Shown here in pieces: positions 3,090 through 11,031 of a stretch of 64,000 bases of DNA. The stretch comes from Candidatus Brocadia pituitae (GTDB lineage Bacteria; Planctomycetota; Brocadiia; Brocadiales; Brocadiaceae): contig AP021856.1 in assembly GCA_017347445.1 (NCBI GenBank), positions 2,860,613 through 2,924,612 on the forward strand. The letters are read 5' to 3'. Within the stretch, counting starts at the first letter, position 1, and every line of letters begins with the position of its first letter. The notes below the pieces were generated by a model. It was not told where the DNA came from. It did no database searches and worked only from the letters and a program-made list of their open reading frames with translations. Position numbers and translations under genes: made by a program.

Positions 3090-6062
3090 ATGCCTGCTCC
3101 TCAGGAAATCCTTGAATTGACCGAACGATTCGACAACAATCGCGAGGCATATCGTTCTGGCGCGTACAACGAAACCCAGCTTCGGCGCGAGTTCATCGAT
3201 CCATTTTTTAAAATGCTTGGCTGGGACGTGAATAATGAGAAGGGTTACTCGGAGGCGTATAAAGACGTTATCCACGAGGATTCCATAAAGGTTGGCGGTA
3301 TGACGAAGGCCCCGGATTACTGCTTCCGCATCGGAGGCGTCCGCAAATTCTTCGTGGAAACAAAGAAGCCCTCCGTCAACCTTAAAGATGATGCCGACCC
3401 TGCATTTCAACTGCGCCGCTACACATGGTCAGCAAAACTCCCACTCAGTATTCTCACCGACTTTGAGGAGTTCGTCGTTTACGATTGCAGGATAAAACCC
3501 GATAAGTCAGACAAGTCTTCCACTGCCCGTATCCTCTATCTCAACCACACCGAGTATGCACAGCGCTGGGATGAGATCGCCTCCGTCTTCTCACGTGAAG
3601 CGGTACTCAAAGGCGCCTTTGATAAATACGCCGAATCGGGCAAGGCCAAAAAAGGCACCGCATCGGTTGATGATGCCTTTCTGCATGAGATCGAATCCTG
3701 GCGCGACACGCTTGCCCGCAACTTGGCACTACGGAATCCTGATTTGACCCAGCACGACCTGAACTTTGCCGTCCAGCGCATCATCGACCGCATTATCTTC
3801 CTGCGTATCTGTGAGGATCGAGGCATCGAAAAATACGGTCGCCTCATGGCCTTGCAGAACGGCGACCACGTGTACGCACGCCTCTGCGAAATGTTCCATC
3901 GCGCTGATGAACGCTACAACTCTGGCTTGTTTCACTTCCAAAAGGAAAAGGGCCGTGCTGAATCGCCAGACACCCTCACCCTGGTCTTGACCATTGACGA
4001 CAGTGCGCTCAAGGATATCATCAAAAACCTGTACTATCCCGACAGCCCCTATGAATTCTCTGTCCTTTCGGCTGACATCCTGGGTCAGGTCTACGAGCAA
4101 TTTTTAGGCAAGGTAATCCGCCTAACGGCTGGCCATCGTGCTGTGGTAGAGGACAAGCCTGAGGTCAAGAAGGCAGGCGGGGTTTACTACACACCGACCT
4201 ATATCGTTGACTACATCGTAAAGAATACCGTTGGTTGCCTTGTTACCCCCCTTATTCCCCCCGTAAACGGGGGGAAAAATATTTCCCTCCCCGTTTACGG
4301 AGAGGGCCAGGGTGGGGTGGTTGCTCCCCTTTATGGGAAAACACGAGGGGATGATAAACTCCAGCGCAACATTATCCCCAAACAGGTATCCAAACTGAGA
4401 ATCCTCGACCCTGCCTGCGGCTCAGGCTCTTTTCTCCTGGGCGCCTATGAATACCTGCTTGACTGGCACCGCGACTGGTACGTGGCCAATGGCCCAGAGA
4501 AATGGTCAACCGGCCGATCACCGGCATTATACCAATCTGGAAAATCCGAAATCCGAAGTCCAAAATCCGAAACAGATAGTTGGCGGCTGACCACTGCCGA
4601 ACGCAAGCGCATTCTCTTGAACAACATCTACGGCGTAGACATCGACCCGCAGGCTGTGGAAGTAACCAAGCTGTCACTGCTTTTGAAGGTGCTGGAAGGC
4701 GAGTCAGAGCAGACGATTGTAAGACAGCTCAAACTCTTCCACGAACGCGCCCTGCCTGATCTTGGTAATAACATCAAGTGTGGCAACTCGCTCATCGGCA
4801 CGGATTTTTATAACACACCCCTTATATCCCCTCTTTTTAGAGGGGAAAAGATGGACTCCCCTCTAACAAGAGGGGCCGGGGGTGTGTCAGACGAGGAACG
4901 ATACCGCATCAACCCATTCGACTGGGACAAAGAATTCCCGGAGATCATGCAAGCAGGCGGGTTTGACGTAGTGATTGGGAATCCGCCGTATGTGAGACAA
5001 GAAGGCTTAGGAGACCTGAAAGAATATCTCCAACGTAAATACACGGTATATCATGGGATGGCAGACCTCTATGCGTATTTTATTGAGAAAGGTGTTTCGC
5101 TGCTCAGAGATAAAGGGCGTTTCGGCTACATCGTTGCAAACAAGTGGATGCGGGCGAATTATGGTGAGCCGCTCAGAAAGTGGTTAAAGCGACAAGGTAT
5201 TGCGCAAATTGTCGATTTTGGGGACTTACCCGTATTCCAGCAAGCTACAACGTATCCCTGCATTCTCGTCATCGGAAAAGATACATCTCCATCTGCTACT
5301 CCTGATGGTTCAGGCTTGCAGCCTGAACCAGGTATTTTGATTCAATCGAAGAGGACTGCACCATTAAGATCGGCAAAGAAGCCTATTACCACACTTTCCG
5401 TGACTCAGGTAAAGACACTTGAATTTGAAAGTCTGGAAGACTATGTAAAAGGAAACCGCCATGCTGTAAAACTTGCCACCCTTGACGACACGGGCTGGTC
5501 GCTTGCAGATGAACGAAGCGCTGAGCTGCTCAACAAGCTGAAAAAGGCCGGAATTCCTTTAAAAGAATATGTAAAGGGTAAAATCTACTATGGTATTAAG
5601 ACAGGACTCAATGAGGCATTTGTAATCGATGCAGAAACAAGGAATCGGCTCATTTCTGAAGACCCTAAAAGCAAAGAGATTATAAAGCCATTCCTGATAG
5701 GGCGAGACGTAAAGAGGTATTGTATAGAAGATGAAGGACGCTACCTGATTCTTATTCCGAAGGGCTGGACTGGACAAAAGTCTTCCAGTTTTGGAGATGC
5801 ATGGAAATGGTTTAAACAAAATTACCCATCAATAGCGAATCATTTGTTGCCATTCAAAGAAAAGGCCGAAAAGCGTTATGATAAAGGTGAATACTGGTGG
5901 GAACTAAGGGCGTGTGAATACTATGCGGAATTTGAAAAACCAAAGATAATTATTCCAACAATTGTGCAAAACGCCTCATATACATTAGATATTTTAGGTT
6001 TTTATTCGAATGACAAAACATCTATTATTGGTACAGATGATTATACTTGCTTGGAATATTGA
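3090..6062 (+). CDS. Type IIG-like restriction-modification enzyme (Eco57I/N6 adenine methylase class), frameshifted near the end
   Basis: A fused nuclease-methyltransferase-specificity protein that would methylate adenine and cleave foreign DNA. The N-terminus (residues 1-150) resembles the endonuclease domain of type I/IIG enzymes (PDYCFRIGGVRKFFVETKKP). The SAM-binding motif LDPACGSGSFL is near residue 437 and the catalytic NPPY near residue 631; a TaqI-like specificity region follows. The frame ends at 6062 after DDYTCLEY, but the expected continuation (LGILNSRVADF) is present in the next frame and runs to 6394. Adding one T in the gattata stretch at about 6039-6043 would restore DDLYLLGILNS. 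The coding region also carries four repeat-derived insertions that keep the frame open (4243-4350, 4542-4573, 4813-4887, 5306-5330). It may be inactive or a sequencing error. Confidence 0.85.
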   Translation: MPAPQEILELTERFDNNREAYRSGAYNETQLRREFIDPFFKMLGWDVNNEKGYSEAYKDVIHEDSIKVGGMTKAPDYCFRIGGVRKFFVETKKPSVNLKDDADPAFQLRRYTWSAKLPLSILTDFEEFVVYDCRIKPDKSDKSSTARILYLNHTEYAQRWDEIASVFSREAVLKGAFDKYAESGKAKKGTASVDDAFLHEIESWRDTLARNLALRNPDLTQHDLNFAVQRIIDRIIFLRICEDRGIEKYGRLMALQNGDHVYARLCEMFHRADERYNSGLFHFQKEKGRAESPDTLTLVLTIDDSALKDIIKNLYYPDSPYEFSVLSADILGQVYEQFLGKVIRLTAGHRAVVEDKPEVKKAGGVYYTPTYIVDYIVKNTVGCLVTPLIPPVNGGKNISLPVYGEGQGGVVAPLYGKTRGDDKLQRNIIPKQVSKLRILDPACGSGSFLLGAYEYLLDWHRDWYVANGPEKWSTGRSPALYQSGKSEIRSPKSETDSWRLTTAERKRILLNNIYGVDIDPQAVEVTKLSLLLKVLEGESEQTIVRQLKLFHERALPDLGNNIKCGNSLIGTDFYNTPLISPLFRGEKMDSPLTRGAGGVSDEERYRINPFDWDKEFPEIMQAGGFDVVIGNPPYVRQEGLGDLKEYLQRKYTVYHGMADLYAYFIEKGVSLLRDKGRFGYIVANKWMRANYGEPLRKWLKRQGIAQIVDFGDLPVFQQATTYPCILVIGKDTSPSATPDGSGLQPEPGILIQSKRTAPLRSAKKPITTLSVTQVKTLEFESLEDYVKGNRHAVKLATLDDTGWSLADERSAELLNKLKKAGIPLKEYVKGKIYYGIKTGLNEAFVIDAETRNRLISEDPKSKEIIKPFLIGRDVKRYCIEDEGRYLILIPKGWTGQKSSSFGDAWKWFKQNYPSIANHLLPFKEKAEKRYDKGEYWWELRACEYYAEFEKPKIIIPTIVQNASYTLDILGFYSNDKTSIIGTDDYTCLEY
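4243..4350. repeat. REP-like palindromic insertion inside the restriction-modification gene (copy A)
   Basis: Contains the perfect hairpin CCCCCCGTaaACGGGGGG (4256-4273) preceded by ACCCCCCTTATT, then a second unit CCCCGTTTACGGAGAGGG followed by CAGGGTGGGG. It is translated in frame as a low-complexity Pro/Gly-rich stretch between the YIVKNTVG segment and the SAM motif, where related enzymes have only a short linker. Confidence 0.75.
4542..4573. repeat. Heptanucleotide repeat AAATCCG inside the restriction-modification gene
   Basis: Units AAATCCG, AAATCCG, AAGTCCA, AAATCCG, AAAC run in tandem with a 7-base period. They are read as GKSEIRSPKSET within the linker after the SAM motif. A 7-base period shifts the reading frame each unit, yet no stop appears. 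Confidence 0.8.
4813..4887. repeat. REP-like double-hairpin insertion inside the restriction-modification gene (copy C)
   Basis: Outer arms ACACACCCC (4813-4821) and GGGGTGTGT (4879-4887) enclose two hairpins, CCCCTCTttttAGAGGGG (4828-4845) and CCCCTCTaacaAGAGGGG (4858-4875). The first unit is almost the same as the right end of the DUF559 cassettes. It is read in frame as NTPLISPLFRGEKMDSPLTR. Confidence 0.9.
5306..5330. repeat. Perfect palindrome inside the restriction-modification gene
   Basis: TGGTTCAGGCT, loop TGC, AGCCTGAACCA: 11-base perfect arms. Related imperfect palindromes (GGTTCAGGTTTGAAACTTGA and following bases) occur at 7296-7318 and 9041-9063, at the left ends of the DUF559 repeats. 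Confidence 0.85.
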
Positions 6063-7178: not shown

Positions 7179-7424
7179 GATAAGCATTCTGTAAACGAGT
7201 GACGTTATATAAATTTTGGCAGTTCTGCAAAGGGGCGTGTTTTGATTTTGTTTCATAATTACAATTCAATCCATGGGGGTTGCACTCCACGAGCGGGTTC
7301 ACGTTTGAAGCTTGAACCCACCAATTTGATTCACCCGTAGGTTTGAATTTTTTGGCGTTATTAGCTGACAAACTATGGGATTCTGGTTATATACCTGAAC
7401 TCGCGAATTAATGGAACATCGTGT

Positions 7425-7459
7425 TTTCCCCTCTAAAAAGAGGGGATTAAGGGGTGTGT
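7425..7459. repeat. Left terminal inverted repeat of DUF559 cassette 1
   Basis: CCCCTCTaaaaAGAGGGG followed by ATTAAGGGGTGTGT; exact reverse complement of 7836-7870 over 35 bases. Its AGGGG lies 10-15 bases before the ATG at 7465 and may serve as ribosome binding site. Confidence 0.9.
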
Positions 7460-7464
7460 TTCCC

Positions 7465-7848
7465 ATGAAGATAAATTACCATCCAAAACTCAGGGAACTT
7501 GCACGGAAATTGAGAAAGAAGAGTACGAAATCAGAAATAAAGCTCTGGCAATACTTAAAGAGTAAAAAAATGATGGGGTATGATTTTCATCGGCAAAAAC
7601 CAATTGATAAGTTTATAGTAGATTTCTTCTGTAATAAATTAAAACTTGCTATTGAGTTGGATGGTTATACCCATACCTTTGAAAAAATTGCAGAGAAAGA
7701 CGCCGTAAAACAAGGGAAATTAAAGGAATTGGAGATAACGGTATTGAGATTTTGCGATGAAGATGTGATGAAAAATACGGATGGAGTTTTACAAGTGATT
7801 CGAAGGTTTATTGAAAATTATGAAAAACAGAACTTACACACCCCTTAA
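7465..7848 (+). CDS. DUF559 (Vsr/PD-(D/E)XK-like) nuclease, copy 1
   Basis: DUF559 proteins (PF04480) have the restriction-endonuclease fold related to Vsr and are thought to cut or nick DNA; their role is not established. The 127-residue product shows a helical start (LARKLRKKSTKSEIKLW) and the probable active-site region DFFCNKLKLAIELDGYTH, with Asp and Glu-x-Asp acidic residues. I chose ATG 7465 because an in-frame ATG at 7411 would add 18 residues encoded by the inverted repeat. The last codons (LHTP, stop) come from the right inverted repeat. Copy 2 differs at about 8 residues. It stands alone, with no methylase partner beside it. Confidence 0.85.
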   Translation: MKINYHPKLRELARKLRKKSTKSEIKLWQYLKSKKMMGYDFHRQKPIDKFIVDFFCNKLKLAIELDGYTHTFEKIAEKDAVKQGKLKELEITVLRFCDEDVMKNTDGVLQVIRRFIENYEKQNLHTP

Positions 7849-7870
7849 TCCCCTCTTTTTAGAGGGGAAA
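7836..7870. repeat. Right terminal inverted repeat of DUF559 cassette 1
   Basis: ACACACCCCTTAAT followed by CCCCTCTttttAGAGGGG and AAA; reverse complement of 7425-7459. The nuclease stop codon TAA (7846-7848) is part of it. Confidence 0.9.
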
Positions 7871-8026
7871 GCCGGGAGTAGCAGCAGATTACGATAGTGA
7901 ATGACCATTGGCCGGCATTGAGATTCTTGATGCCGTAAAACGTTTTGGTATCCAAGACACTCTTCTGTAAGCTGTAATCGAATGAAAGTGGATTGACGAG
8001 AGGATTTTGGTGGAAGAACTGAGGCA

Positions 8027-8287
8027 TTACACGTCAATATGGAATATTTTCAAAAATGCTGAAAGAAAGGCCGCAAACGTTAAATAGATAAAAAATCCTA
8101 TGAAAATTTTGTATAGAACTCTTTTCGTTTTGTTGTGGTCAAAGGGCCATGTTCGTATGGCTATATAGCAGCCTTTTTTTGCAATACCTTTGCAGGCATT
8201 GAACAGAAAGACGCCAATTAGAAACCAGGCAATGAGTTCGAACATGAAAAGGATTATAGCTGGATACAAAATAAAGTTCAACGGCAA
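8027..8287 (-). CDS. Small membrane protein, 86 aa
   Basis: Minus-strand frame with two hydrophobic segments (FELIAWFLIGVFLFNAC and IFIGFFIYLTFAAFLSAFL) separated by a basic loop. It starts at TTG 8287 or at ATG 8245. No family is recognised and no clear ribosome binding site is visible. It lies between the two DUF559 cassettes; the good hydrophobic pattern is the main support for it being real. Confidence 0.45.
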   Translation of the reverse strand: MPLNFILYPAIILFMFELIAWFLIGVFLFNACKGIAKKGCYIAIRTWPFDHNKTKRVLYKIFIGFFIYLTFAAFLSAFLKIFHIDV

Positions 8288-8303
8288 ACCAAAAATACCG
8301 TTA

Positions 8304-8372
8304 GTTTGAATTCCTGAGGTTATTAGCTGACAAACAACGAAATTCAGGTTACAACCCTGAATCTGCTGTGAG
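8304..8372. repeat. Solo copy of the DUF559 left-flank repeat
   Basis: GTTTGAATT followed by GTTATTAGCTGACAAAC and a palindromic ATTCAGGTTacaACCCTGAAT matches 7341-7393 and 9086-9138 at roughly 75-80%, but no terminal repeat or nuclease gene follows. It shows that the flank exists on its own. Confidence 0.65.
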
Positions 8373-8412
8373 ATTCAACAGGCAAAATCAGTGCGGAAAC
8401 AGCCGCCATCTT

Positions 8413-8506
8413 TGCATAATTTAATTCCGTCACACAACGTGCTTTTTCTCGTGTATCTCGTTTGGCAGGATATACAGACCCGTTCTTTTTTGTATCAATG
8501 ATACAA
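8413..8506. repeat. Dispersed repeat copy 2 with adjoining palindrome
   Basis: Matches 6418-6484 (CGTCACACAACGT, TTTTTCT, TATACAG), followed by the palindrome TTGTATCaatGATACAA (8490-8506). A 54-aa ORF starts at 8562. Confidence 0.6.
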
Positions 8507-8561
8507 CTAATTATTAAATCTACTCGTTGACTCATAATAATTTTCCAGGTACACTATTGCG

Positions 8562-8726
8562 ATGGAAATTCTCATATTTATCGTTTCGCTCGCCCTTGCG
8601 ATTTTTTATCATTATCGCTTTCGTTCTTATTTCAGGCAAAAATCTGCATGCCGACAGATAATCCAGAACAGTAAAAATAAGAATACCATTATATTGGATG
8701 AAACTGATTCGGATACGCAGGCCTAA
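8562..8726 (+). CDS. Small single-pass membrane protein, 54 aa
   Basis: ATG 8562 to TAA 8726. The product begins MEILIFIVSLALAIFYHYRF, a good N-terminal membrane segment, followed by a basic and then acidic tail. No family is recognised and only a weak upstream AGG is present. It is comparable in size with other orphan genes in this island. Confidence 0.45.
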   Translation: MEILIFIVSLALAIFYHYRFRSYFRQKSACRQIIQNSKNKNTIILDETDSDTQA

Positions 8727-8760
8727 ACCAAAGAGATATTCTTTTGTTACAATTTAGAGT

Positions 8761-8976
8761 ATGGAAGCCATTCTTTTTCTTATCGCCTTTTTTTGCGCCT
8801 TGCGTTCACACTTTGCATGCAAACGAGCTTTTGGCCCATGTTCCCTGGTAAAACCGAAACCACCGACTAAGCCCGATATACCCTTTTCTGCAAAACATCT
8901 ATACAAAGAACCTCCGGTGATAGGACTTATTGCCTTTGTGATATTTATCATTCTTTGTCATTTATTTGCCTCCTGA
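8761..8976 (+). CDS. Small two-pass membrane protein, 71 aa
   Basis: ATG 8761 to TGA 8976. Hydrophobic segments lie at residues 2-14 (EAILFLIAFFCAL) and 52-69 (PVIGLIAFVIFIILCHLF), with a Pro/Lys-rich loop between them. No known family. It follows the 54-aa membrane ORF by 34 bases, so the two may be co-transcribed. Confidence 0.45.
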   Translation: MEAILFLIAFFCALRSHFACKRAFGPCSLVKPKPPTKPDIPFSAKHLYKEPPVIGLIAFVIFIILCHLFAS

Positions 8977-9036
8977 GCAATTTTCGCATATCCATTCCAG
9001 GAAATCTCCGTATTCAAAGACTTGCACCGGTCCCCA

Positions 9037-9616
9037 AGCGGGTTCAGGTTTGAAACTTGAACCCAACAGTTTGTTTCATCCGTCGGTTTGAATTTTTTGG
9101 CGTTATTAGCTGACAAACTATGGGATTCTGGTTATATACCTGAACTCGCGAATTAATGGAACATCGTGTTTTCCCCTCTAAAAAGAGGGGATTAAGGGGT
9201 GTGTTTCCCATGAAGATAAATTACCATCCAAAACTCAAAGAACTTGCACGGAAATTGAGAAAGAAGAGTACGAAATCAGAGATAAAACTCTGGCAATACT
9301 TAAAGAGTAAAAAAATGATGGGGTATGATTTTCATCGGCAAAAACCAATTGATAAGTTTATAGCAGATTTCTTCTGTAATAAATTAAAACTTGCCATTGA
9401 GTTGGATGGTTATACCCATACCTTTGAAGAAATTGCAGAGAAAGACGCCGTAAAACAAGGGAAATTAAAGGAACTGGGGATAACGGTATTGAAATTATGC
9501 GATGAAGATGTAATGAAAAATACGGAAGGGGTTTTACAAGTGATTCGAAGGTTTATTGAAAATTATGAAAACCAGAACTTACACACCCCTTAATCCCCTC
9601 TTTTTAGCGGGGAAAG
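9037..9616 (+). mobile_element. DUF559 cassette copy 2
   Basis: Second copy of the block at 7292-7871. Terminal repeats are 9170-9204 and 9581-9615; the right hairpin has one changed base (AGCGGGG). Sequence on both outer sides differs from copy 1, so the boundaries at about 9037 and 9616 are the edges of the repeated unit. Confidence 0.7.
9210..9593 (+). CDS. DUF559 (Vsr/PD-(D/E)XK-like) nuclease, copy 2
   Basis: 127 residues, about 94% identical to the product at 7465-7848, with the same acidic motif region (DFFCNKLKLAIELDGYTH) intact. All differences are substitutions such as R10K and E to G; none creates a stop, and many DNA changes are silent, which suggests both copies have been kept functional. 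Start chosen at ATG 9210 for the same reason as in copy 1; the stop lies within the right inverted repeat. Confidence 0.85.
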   Translation: MKINYHPKLKELARKLRKKSTKSEIKLWQYLKSKKMMGYDFHRQKPIDKFIADFFCNKLKLAIELDGYTHTFEEIAEKDAVKQGKLKELGITVLKLCDEDVMKNTEGVLQVIRRFIENYENQNLHTP

Positions 9617-10500: not shown

Positions 10501-11031
10501 AAGCTGGCAGGCATGTTGGGTTGCGTTCCTCTTTCTTAAGCGGGATCAAGTGTGTATGTATAGAATTAGAGGAGTATAAAACACGGCAAATACGGTAACA
10601 CCGCTCTACTGAAAAGGGTTGTACTAAACACAGGCAAATGATTTTCCTGCCTTAGAACAGCGAGTGCAACGGGGCGGTACAATCCACCCCCTTGAACCCC
10701 CGCCGGCGGGGGACAATTTGCGTTCAAGCTTATTGACAAGCAGTTGATAGGTTTATGGCTTCTGCGCCGGATAAGGTGGGCGATGCCCGCAAGTGGTGCA
10801 CACCTTCAGGGTTGTTTGGATGGCTTGGGCTGTAGTGTGTTTGCGCCTTATATCGGTGTGGAGGCTTTTATAGACATGGCAGTGCGTGTCCCCCGCTGGC
10901 GGGGGATTAAGGGGGTGGAGCGGCACGAGTGAAAATTATTGCAAGTTTACCCCGTGTATTTGCAAAATAAAGTTCAATAGCAAACCCAAGCCCCCTTGTT
11001 TCGCAATTCTTCGTTATTGGAATACCGGATT
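10501..11031. other. Intergenic region with two facing REP-like units
   Basis: No gene is supported. It contains units at 10684-10712 (CCACCCCCTTGAA followed by hairpin CCCCCGCCGGCGGGGG) and 10890-10918 (hairpin CCCCCGCTGGCGGGGG followed by ATTAAGGGGGTGG), in inverted orientation 177 bases apart. Confidence 0.6.
10684..10918. repeat. REP-like pair, BIME-style arrangement
   Basis: The first unit ends with a perfect 16-base palindrome (10697-10712); the second begins with a near-perfect one (10890-10905) and runs into ATTAAGGGGGTGG. The edge sequence matches the DUF559 repeat edge ATTAAGGGGTGTG although the hairpin stems differ in sequence. Confidence 0.75.

What the first reader, a model, noticed from the sequence alone, without database searches (positions are those of the whole stretch)
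7292..9616. DUF559 nuclease genes as repeat-flanked elements, two copies in tandem array
Two 580-base blocks hold only a DUF559 nuclease gene, 35-base terminal inverted repeats that are themselves hairpins, and a conserved left flank. The stop codon, possible ribosome binding site and an alternative start lie in the repeats, so gene and repeat evolve as one unit. No transposase is present. This resembles the RAYT/REP arrangement but with a PD-(D/E)XK-type protein instead of a Y1 transposase; that the nuclease moves or maintains the repeats is inference.
Basis: partly seen in the sequence, partly recalled or inferred. Interest (0 to 1): 0.8.

Follow-up and report, generated by a model that had tools for sequence, protein, structure and literature searches.

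The report
Nuclease gene cassettes with palindromic ends
A small DNA-cutting enzyme gene (DUF559) travels through bacterial genomes as one unit with a matching pair of hairpin repeats, sits in frame inside essential genes in some bacteria, and leaves gene-less copies of the hairpins behind; this gives a candidate driver for a kind of genome-wide palindromic repeat that had none.

Summary
Observation essentially confirmed: two DUF559 cassettes (7425-7870, 9170-9615), each gene held between 35-bp inverted hairpin repeats (100% and 97% complementary). The 'conserved left flank' is a separate repeat, and the second window copy looks like local duplication. Of 74 DUF559 domains (mostly Brocadiaceae) 57 have inverted hairpin ends, against 15 of 1333 control intervals; the same is seen in Cyanobacteriota (24/31) and, more weakly, Bacteroidota (8/26). 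Eight repeat types map onto eight protein clades with the minimum of 7 changes (shuffled 38). Gene-less inverted doublets of the same repeats are scattered through the genomes; reversed-pattern control zero. In Melainabacteria and Bacteroidota whole cassettes lie in frame inside priA, leuS, metH, ispE and other genes. priA and leuS have relatives with empty linkers or repeat-only remnants; occupancy is scattered on the host trees while the priA nucleases form one clade: a homing-like pattern. The fold matches homing endonuclease I-Bth0305I. Best reading: a homing-type selfish cassette whose nuclease maintains a REP-like repeat family, working like RAYT/REP but not a member. Cleavage and movement are inferred, not shown. 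No paper found links DUF559 to repeats.

The parts
7425..7459 (+). Left end of cassette 1: hairpin CCCCTCT-AAAA-AGAGGGG, spacer ATTA, second G-arm AGGGGTGTGT
   Evidence: Inverted repeat I1, 100%; folds as hairpin
7465..7848 (+). DUF559 nuclease gene 1 (127 aa from ATG 7465; alternative upstream ATG 7411)
   Evidence: PF04480 E 5.7e-31; homologues start at the same MKI; AlphaFold model, PDB matches 3hrl and 3r3p
7836..7870 (-). Right end of cassette 1, inverted copy; holds the gene's stop codon
9170..9204 (+). Left end of cassette 2
9210..9593 (+). DUF559 nuclease gene 2 (14 codons differ from copy 1 over the 145-codon frame: 6 synonymous, 8 not)
   Evidence: PF04480 E 5.7e-30
9581..9615 (-). 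Right end of cassette 2 (one mismatch)
7292..7405 (+).
   Evidence: Occurs without the cassette upstream of RlaP in L250 and L252
9037..9150 (+). Second copy of that separate repeat
   Evidence: first 61 bp only 54/61 identical to copy 1 while the next 72 bp are 72/72
4813..4889 (+). Gene-less doublet of the same repeat (tails outward), in frame inside the type IIG restriction-modification gene 3090-6062
   Evidence: sequence, pattern census, folds at -25.9 kcal/mol, z -7.1
4245..4321 (+). Second, divergent palindromic doublet in frame in the same gene (translated PLIPPVNGGKNISLPVYGEGQGGVV)
   Evidence: sequence and translation
10685..10712 (-). Solitary end of B-like type (CCCCCGCCGGCGGGGG...GGGGGTG)
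10890..10917 (+). Solitary end of type B (CCCCCGCTGGCGGGGGATTAAGGGGGTG)

Best explanation
Each block is a self-contained selfish cassette: a DUF559 nuclease (Vsr / I-Bth0305I-like fold) plus two inverted palindromic ends that it most likely recognises. The proposed mechanism is homing-like. The nuclease nicks or cuts DNA at its own type of palindrome, or at an intact target in a cognate gene, and repair copies the cassette, or a gene-less end doublet, into the break. Gene-less doublets spread the same way in trans and form the REP-like repeat family. In frame-open cassettes the ends are read through, so insertion into linkers of essential genes is tolerated. Shown: architecture, association, protein-repeat co-segregation, dispersed gene-less copies, in-frame insertions with empty and remnant sites, purifying selection on the gene. 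Inferred: that the nuclease cleaves these ends or targets, and that cleavage drives copying.
For: Inverted ends at 57/74 DUF559 domains vs 15/1333 control intervals; Cyanobacteriota 24/31, Bacteroidota 8/26 vs 2/914; inverted hairpin ends also in Deinococcus, Sphingomonas, Sphingobium, Qipengyuania, Azospirillum and Pseudanabaena. Eight repeat types = eight DUF559 clades, 7 changes (minimum) vs 38.3 shuffled, 0 of 200 as low, while the genome label needs 53; one genome (G010) holds types A-E. The type A repeat is kept in Bacteroidota at 57% and 51% protein identity, where third positions of identical residues agree at only 40/73 and 32/64. End design is conserved: stem C-run equals tail G-run in 66/73 ends, shuffled mean 35, max 49. 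Solo copies are mostly inverted doublets, up to 29, 47 and 38 per genome for types A, B, C, reversed-pattern control 0. In-frame cassettes in PriA, LeuRS, MetH, IspE, HydE, HisA, HsdR, HsdM and others. Empty, occupied and remnant sites in PriA and LeuRS; occupied hosts scattered (5 changes for 5, 4 for 4, no better than random) while PriA-borne DUF559 form one clade (98*) and the LeuRS ones lie in one lineage together with MetH ones. One DUF559 sits inside an intein in place of its nuclease (L044). Fold: homing endonuclease I-Bth0305I E 1.3e-4. dN/dS 0.09-0.18. A Caulobacter DUF559 protein (VsrA) is required for a DNA-damage response in vivo (PMC12907096).
Against: No cleavage, binding or movement was observed. 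No clean nucleotide-level empty site with exact borders or target duplication was found. Matching of solo copy number to presence of the cognate gene is weak (p 0.064, 0.14, 0.011), and genomes G020, G007 and G026 have many repeats but no full-length DUF559 gene found. Clade D always sits in a type III restriction-modification locus, so that clade may be domesticated. Some DUF559 genes (E. coli, Neisseria) have no such ends. Co-segregation alone would also follow from joint inheritance without recognition.
Confidence: 0.6

Rival explanations
1. RAYT-like single-strand mechanism: DUF559 processes the hairpin ends as single-stranded DNA on the lagging strand and the element moves by a cut-and-join route rather than by break repair.
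For: Hairpin ends with an unpaired tagged tail, REPIN-like inverted doublets and a co-evolving nuclease are all as in RAYT/REP.
Against: The fold is a metal-dependent PD-(D/E)XK/Vsr hydrolase, which is not known to rejoin strands (established knowledge of the fold); no catalytic tyrosine HUH domain. The homing-like scatter at fixed priA/leuS sites suits break repair better.
Confidence: 0.2
2. DUF559 is a passenger: the palindromes are moved by another enzyme (for example a RAYT elsewhere in the genome), and DUF559 was trapped between two of them.
For: Repeats persist in genomes without a full-length DUF559; copy number correlates weakly with the gene.
Against: One protein family is flanked by such ends in at least five phyla, with clade-matched repeats in Brocadiaceae; gene under purifying selection. 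A genome-wide search for RAYT was not done.
Confidence: 0.1
3. DUF559 is a host repair or restriction-modification accessory nuclease (Vsr-like) and the hairpins are terminators or mRNA stabilisers of its small operon.
For: Caulobacter VsrA acts with a cytosine methyltransferase (PMC12907096); clade D is always in type III R-M loci, and 14 of 104 neighbours are type III methyltransferases; nearest PDB folds include Vsr.
Against: Does not explain symmetric inverted ends, solo doublets across the genome, or in-frame insertion inside priA, leuS, metH, ispE. Most A, B, C, E cassettes have unrelated neighbours.
Confidence: 0.07
4. Plain segmental duplication with unrelated repeats.
For: In the window itself the two blocks do look like a local duplication or conversion of repeat-plus-cassette: single copy at the same place in G010 and G006, and a breakpoint inside the left repeat.
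Against: Cannot explain the cross-phylum association, clade-matched ends or occupied/empty sites.
Confidence: 0.03

Closest known systems
RAYT / REP and REPIN systems (REPtrons; PMC2817692, PMC3116915, PMC3733652)
   Same: A small nuclease gene flanked by palindromic repeats of the type scattered genome-wide; inverted doublets; several repeat types per genome, each with its own enzyme; repeats can outlive the enzyme.
   Different: DUF559/Vsr-fold nuclease instead of a Y1 HUH tyrosine transposase; end = stem-loop plus a second copy of the G-arm instead of a GTAG tag; the gene-bearing cassette itself sits in frame inside essential genes.
Rickettsia palindromic elements and other CGTC REPs (PMC3733652, PMC10969869)
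   Same: Palindromic elements inserted in frame in housekeeping and repair genes, tolerated in linkers.
   Different: Those are reported to lack a dedicated transposase and carry no gene; here the autonomous, nuclease-bearing form is present at the same sites as the gene-less form. Sequence tag differs.
Homing endonucleases of the EDxHD/Vsr-like class (I-Bth0305I, PDB 3r3p)
   Same: Closest solved fold after DUF559 itself; gene-specific lineages; scattered occupied/empty alleles; one DUF559 serves inside an intein.
   Different: No intron or intein around the cassettes (Rfam 0 hits), terminal inverted palindromes present, and many genomic locations per clade for types B and C.
MITEs / classical IS
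   Same: Terminal inverted repeats and gene-less derivatives.
   Different: No DDE or serine/tyrosine transposase; each end is itself a hairpin; no target-site duplication detected.

Membership tests
RAYT/REP (REPtron) | Y1 tyrosine HUH transposase gene | tested here: not met
   Gene is PF04480 DUF559 with PD-(D/E)XK/Vsr fold
RAYT/REP (REPtron) | Enzyme gene flanked by the repeat family found dispersed in the same genome | tested here: met
   21 places in own genome with up to 3 mismatches, control 0
RAYT/REP (REPtron) | GTAG tag at the foot of the hairpin | tested here: not met
   Tags are G4-5 followed by TGTG, TGGA, TTGT, TGGG, TGGT and similar
RAYT/REP (REPtron) | Enzyme binds and cleaves its own repeat | not testable with these tools
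   Only co-segregation shown
Rickettsia palindromic / CGTC elements | Palindromes in frame inside functional genes | tested here: met
   4813-4889 in the type IIG gene; LeuRS L227
Rickettsia palindromic / CGTC elements | CGTC tag, no associated enzyme | tested here: not met
   Different tag and DUF559 gene present
Homing endonuclease element | Homing endonuclease fold | tested here: met
   3r3p E 1.3e-4, probability 1.00
Homing endonuclease element | Occupied and empty alleles scattered at one site, nuclease lineage specific to the site | tested here: met
   PriA clean: 5 changes, one DUF559 clade; LeuRS scattered, its DUF559 in one lineage that also holds MetH ones
Homing endonuclease element | Cuts the empty allele | not testable with these tools
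   Needs biochemistry
Group I/II intron or intein | Splicing element around the gene | tested here: not met
   No Rfam hit in 9 loci; no intein domain at PriA, LeuRS, MetH. Exception: L044 is a true intein without palindromic ends

The most novel reading that the evidence does not exclude
DUF559 cassettes are a separate, phylum-spanning class of mobile element: homing nucleases with palindromic ends that generate and maintain a large share of the GC-rich hairpin repeats, intergenic and in-frame, seen across bacteria, and that invade essential genes in frame without splicing.
Probability: 0.45. Interest if true: 0.93.

Novelty: new variant of a known kind. Interest (0 to 1): 0.85.

Why it matters
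REP-like palindromes occur in very many bacterial genomes, but for the classes without a RAYT no driving enzyme was known (stated as open for CGTC repeats, including Rickettsia palindromic elements, in PMC3733652). A nuclease that co-segregates with its own repeat type, that is flanked by such ends in several phyla, and that sits in frame even within priA and leuS, makes that question directly testable with one small protein and short DNA oligos. It would also give a biological role for part of a Pfam family still labelled unknown, and would be a clear case of a gene-bearing selfish element that survives inside essential proteins without splicing.

Tried and rejected
Left flank as part of the cassette: rejected, independent repeat. 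Intron or intein explanation for in-gene copies: rejected except L044. Phage or plasmid cargo: DUF559 relatives are in only 38 of 72,556 plasmid and 2 of 50,697 phage records. Clean nucleotide empty site for the window cassette: not obtained; G005, G007 and G008 differ by larger rearrangement or carry only the separate repeat. Empty-site search through plasmid relatives gave no precise border; only that sufB and sufC lie closer together in several other records than in the Sphingomonas record. Copy-number correlation of gene with solo repeats: weak. Paired nearby cassettes in L077: homology runs into the neighbouring gene, so they do not define borders. Repeat types were assigned by hand from the end sequences before the tree was built.

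Full report
What is in the window. Two direct blocks 1745 bp apart hold DUF559 genes inside 35-bp inverted repeats, 100% and 97% complementary. The arm is a hairpin. Pfam PF04480 E-values are 6e-31 and 6e-30. Cassettes 1 and 2 differ at 16 of 446 bp. The window lies in a complete 4.08-Mb genome; relatives point to the Brocadiaceae. It stands without the cassette before the same RlaP gene in two related genomes (L250, L252), and G010 and G006 carry only one cassette there, so the second copy is a local duplication or conversion.

Is the association general? I collected DUF559 loci by protein score only, not by repeats, and scored the best inverted arm within 150 bp of the domain. Of 74 domains, mostly Brocadiaceae, 57 scored 14 or more, against 15 of 1333 same-size intervals of the same loci. 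In Cyanobacteriota it was 24 of 31 and in Bacteroidota 8 of 26, against 2 of 914. Deinococcus, Sphingomonas, Sphingobium, Qipengyuania, Azospirillum and Pseudanabaena copies also have inverted hairpin ends; E. coli and Neisseria copies do not, and Sinorhizobium has no matching pair.

Gene and repeat as one unit. In Brocadiaceae the ends fall into eight types. On a tree of 61 DUF559 domains every type is one clade: 7 changes, the minimum, against 38.3 in shuffles. The genome label needs 53 changes, so the repeat follows the protein and not the host. Type A ends persist in Bacteroidota at 57% and 51% protein identity, where third codon positions of identical residues agree at only 40/73 and 32/64. 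End anatomy is shared: C-run stem, loop, G-run stem, 2-5 nt, then a second G-run; stem C-run and tail G-run have equal length in 66 of 73 ends, shuffled mean 35. The gene is under purifying selection, median dN/dS 0.09-0.18.

Gene-less copies. The own genome holds 21 places with up to 3 mismatches. Inspected solos are mostly inverted doublets, REPIN-like. One doublet lies in frame in the window's type IIG gene at 4813-4889. Across 33 family genomes types A, B and C reach 29, 47 and 38 copies; the reversed pattern gives none. Correlation with presence of the cognate gene is weak (p 0.064, 0.14, 0.011). Some genomes keep repeats without a full-length gene.

Cassettes inside genes. In 46 loci DUF559 lies in a reading frame of 280 aa or more. 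Hosts include PriA, LeuRS, MetH, IspE, HydE, HisA, an M14 peptidase, HsdR, HsdM and type II methyltransferases. In PriA the cassette occupies the linker before the Walker A motif in five genomes. Close relatives have a 40-44 aa empty linker, and two (G121, G144) keep only end remnants. LeuRS shows a 24-aa empty linker, four genomes with about 150 extra residues, and a repeat-only insert in L227. Occupied hosts are scattered on the PriA and LeuRS trees, no more clustered than random. PriA-borne DUF559 form one clade (98*), and LeuRS-borne ones lie in one lineage that also contains the MetH ones. That is the pattern of homing elements, or of repeated loss; the data do not separate gain from loss. 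No intron family was found. One DUF559 sits within an intein (L044).

Protein. The model (pLDDT 79.6) matches the DUF559 structure 3hrl, then the catalytic domain of homing endonuclease I-Bth0305I (E 1.3e-4), with AbaSI and Vsr further down at weak E-values. Invariant residues include R61, Q62, D71, E82, G85, H88 and D97. A Caulobacter DUF559 protein, VsrA, is required for the DNA-damage response of cells lacking a cytosine methyltransferase (PMC12907096).

Mechanism. I commit to a homing-like cassette: the nuclease cuts at its own palindrome type or at a cognate empty site, repair copies the cassette or a doublet in, and frame-open ends make gene insertions tolerable. Cutting and copying are inference. 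Main rivals are a RAYT-like single-strand route, a passenger gene, and a domesticated repair or R-M accessory nuclease, the last plausible for clade D, which is always in a type III R-M locus.

Known or new. RAYT/REP is the closest working analogue but two defining features fail (enzyme, GTAG tag). Rickettsia palindromic and CGTC elements are the closest in-gene analogue but are reported to lack a dedicated enzyme (PMC3733652). Full-text searches found 14 papers naming DUF559; none holds the phrase inverted repeat, and none surfaced in the searches on palindromes; subscription papers and preprints were largely not searchable.

Noticed in passing
window 3090-6062: Type IIG restriction-modification gene carries two palindromic doublets in frame (4245-4321 and 4813-4889), apparently without breaking the frame.
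   Followed up: partly
window 7292-7405, 8319-8361, 9037-9150: A separate ~112-bp repeat with GCGGGTTCAGGTTT/AACCTGAACCCGC ends, dispersed in Brocadiaceae (also L250, L252); a breakpoint inside copy 2 suggests recombination between two such repeats.
   Followed up: partly
L044 1-3258: DUF559 inside an intein of a DNA methylase gene, where a homing endonuclease domain is expected.
   Followed up: partly
L005, L006, L007, L012, L013 around 1440-1660: Solo doublets in the own genome share longer outer flanks (AGGAATTTCAA... and ...GTTGCCAAAGGCAACCTAATTTAA), so they lie within a larger repeat of perhaps 150-170 bp.
   Followed up: no
L003, L051, L053, L054, L089, L091, L094, L096, L099, L101, L103, L104, L106, L107: Clade D DUF559 always sits beside a type III restriction-modification methyltransferase gene.
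   Followed up: partly
L303 600-1050: In Sphingomonas parapaucimobilis a palindrome-flanked DUF559 gene lies between sufB and sufC.
   Followed up: partly
L212 (G144) PriA linker: The linker also holds a stretch resembling CGTC-type repeats, as if this linker collects palindromes of several kinds.
   Followed up: no
L299 980-1200: Sinorhizobium DUF559 has a downstream palindrome that recalls RIME repeats (from memory, not tested).
   Followed up: no
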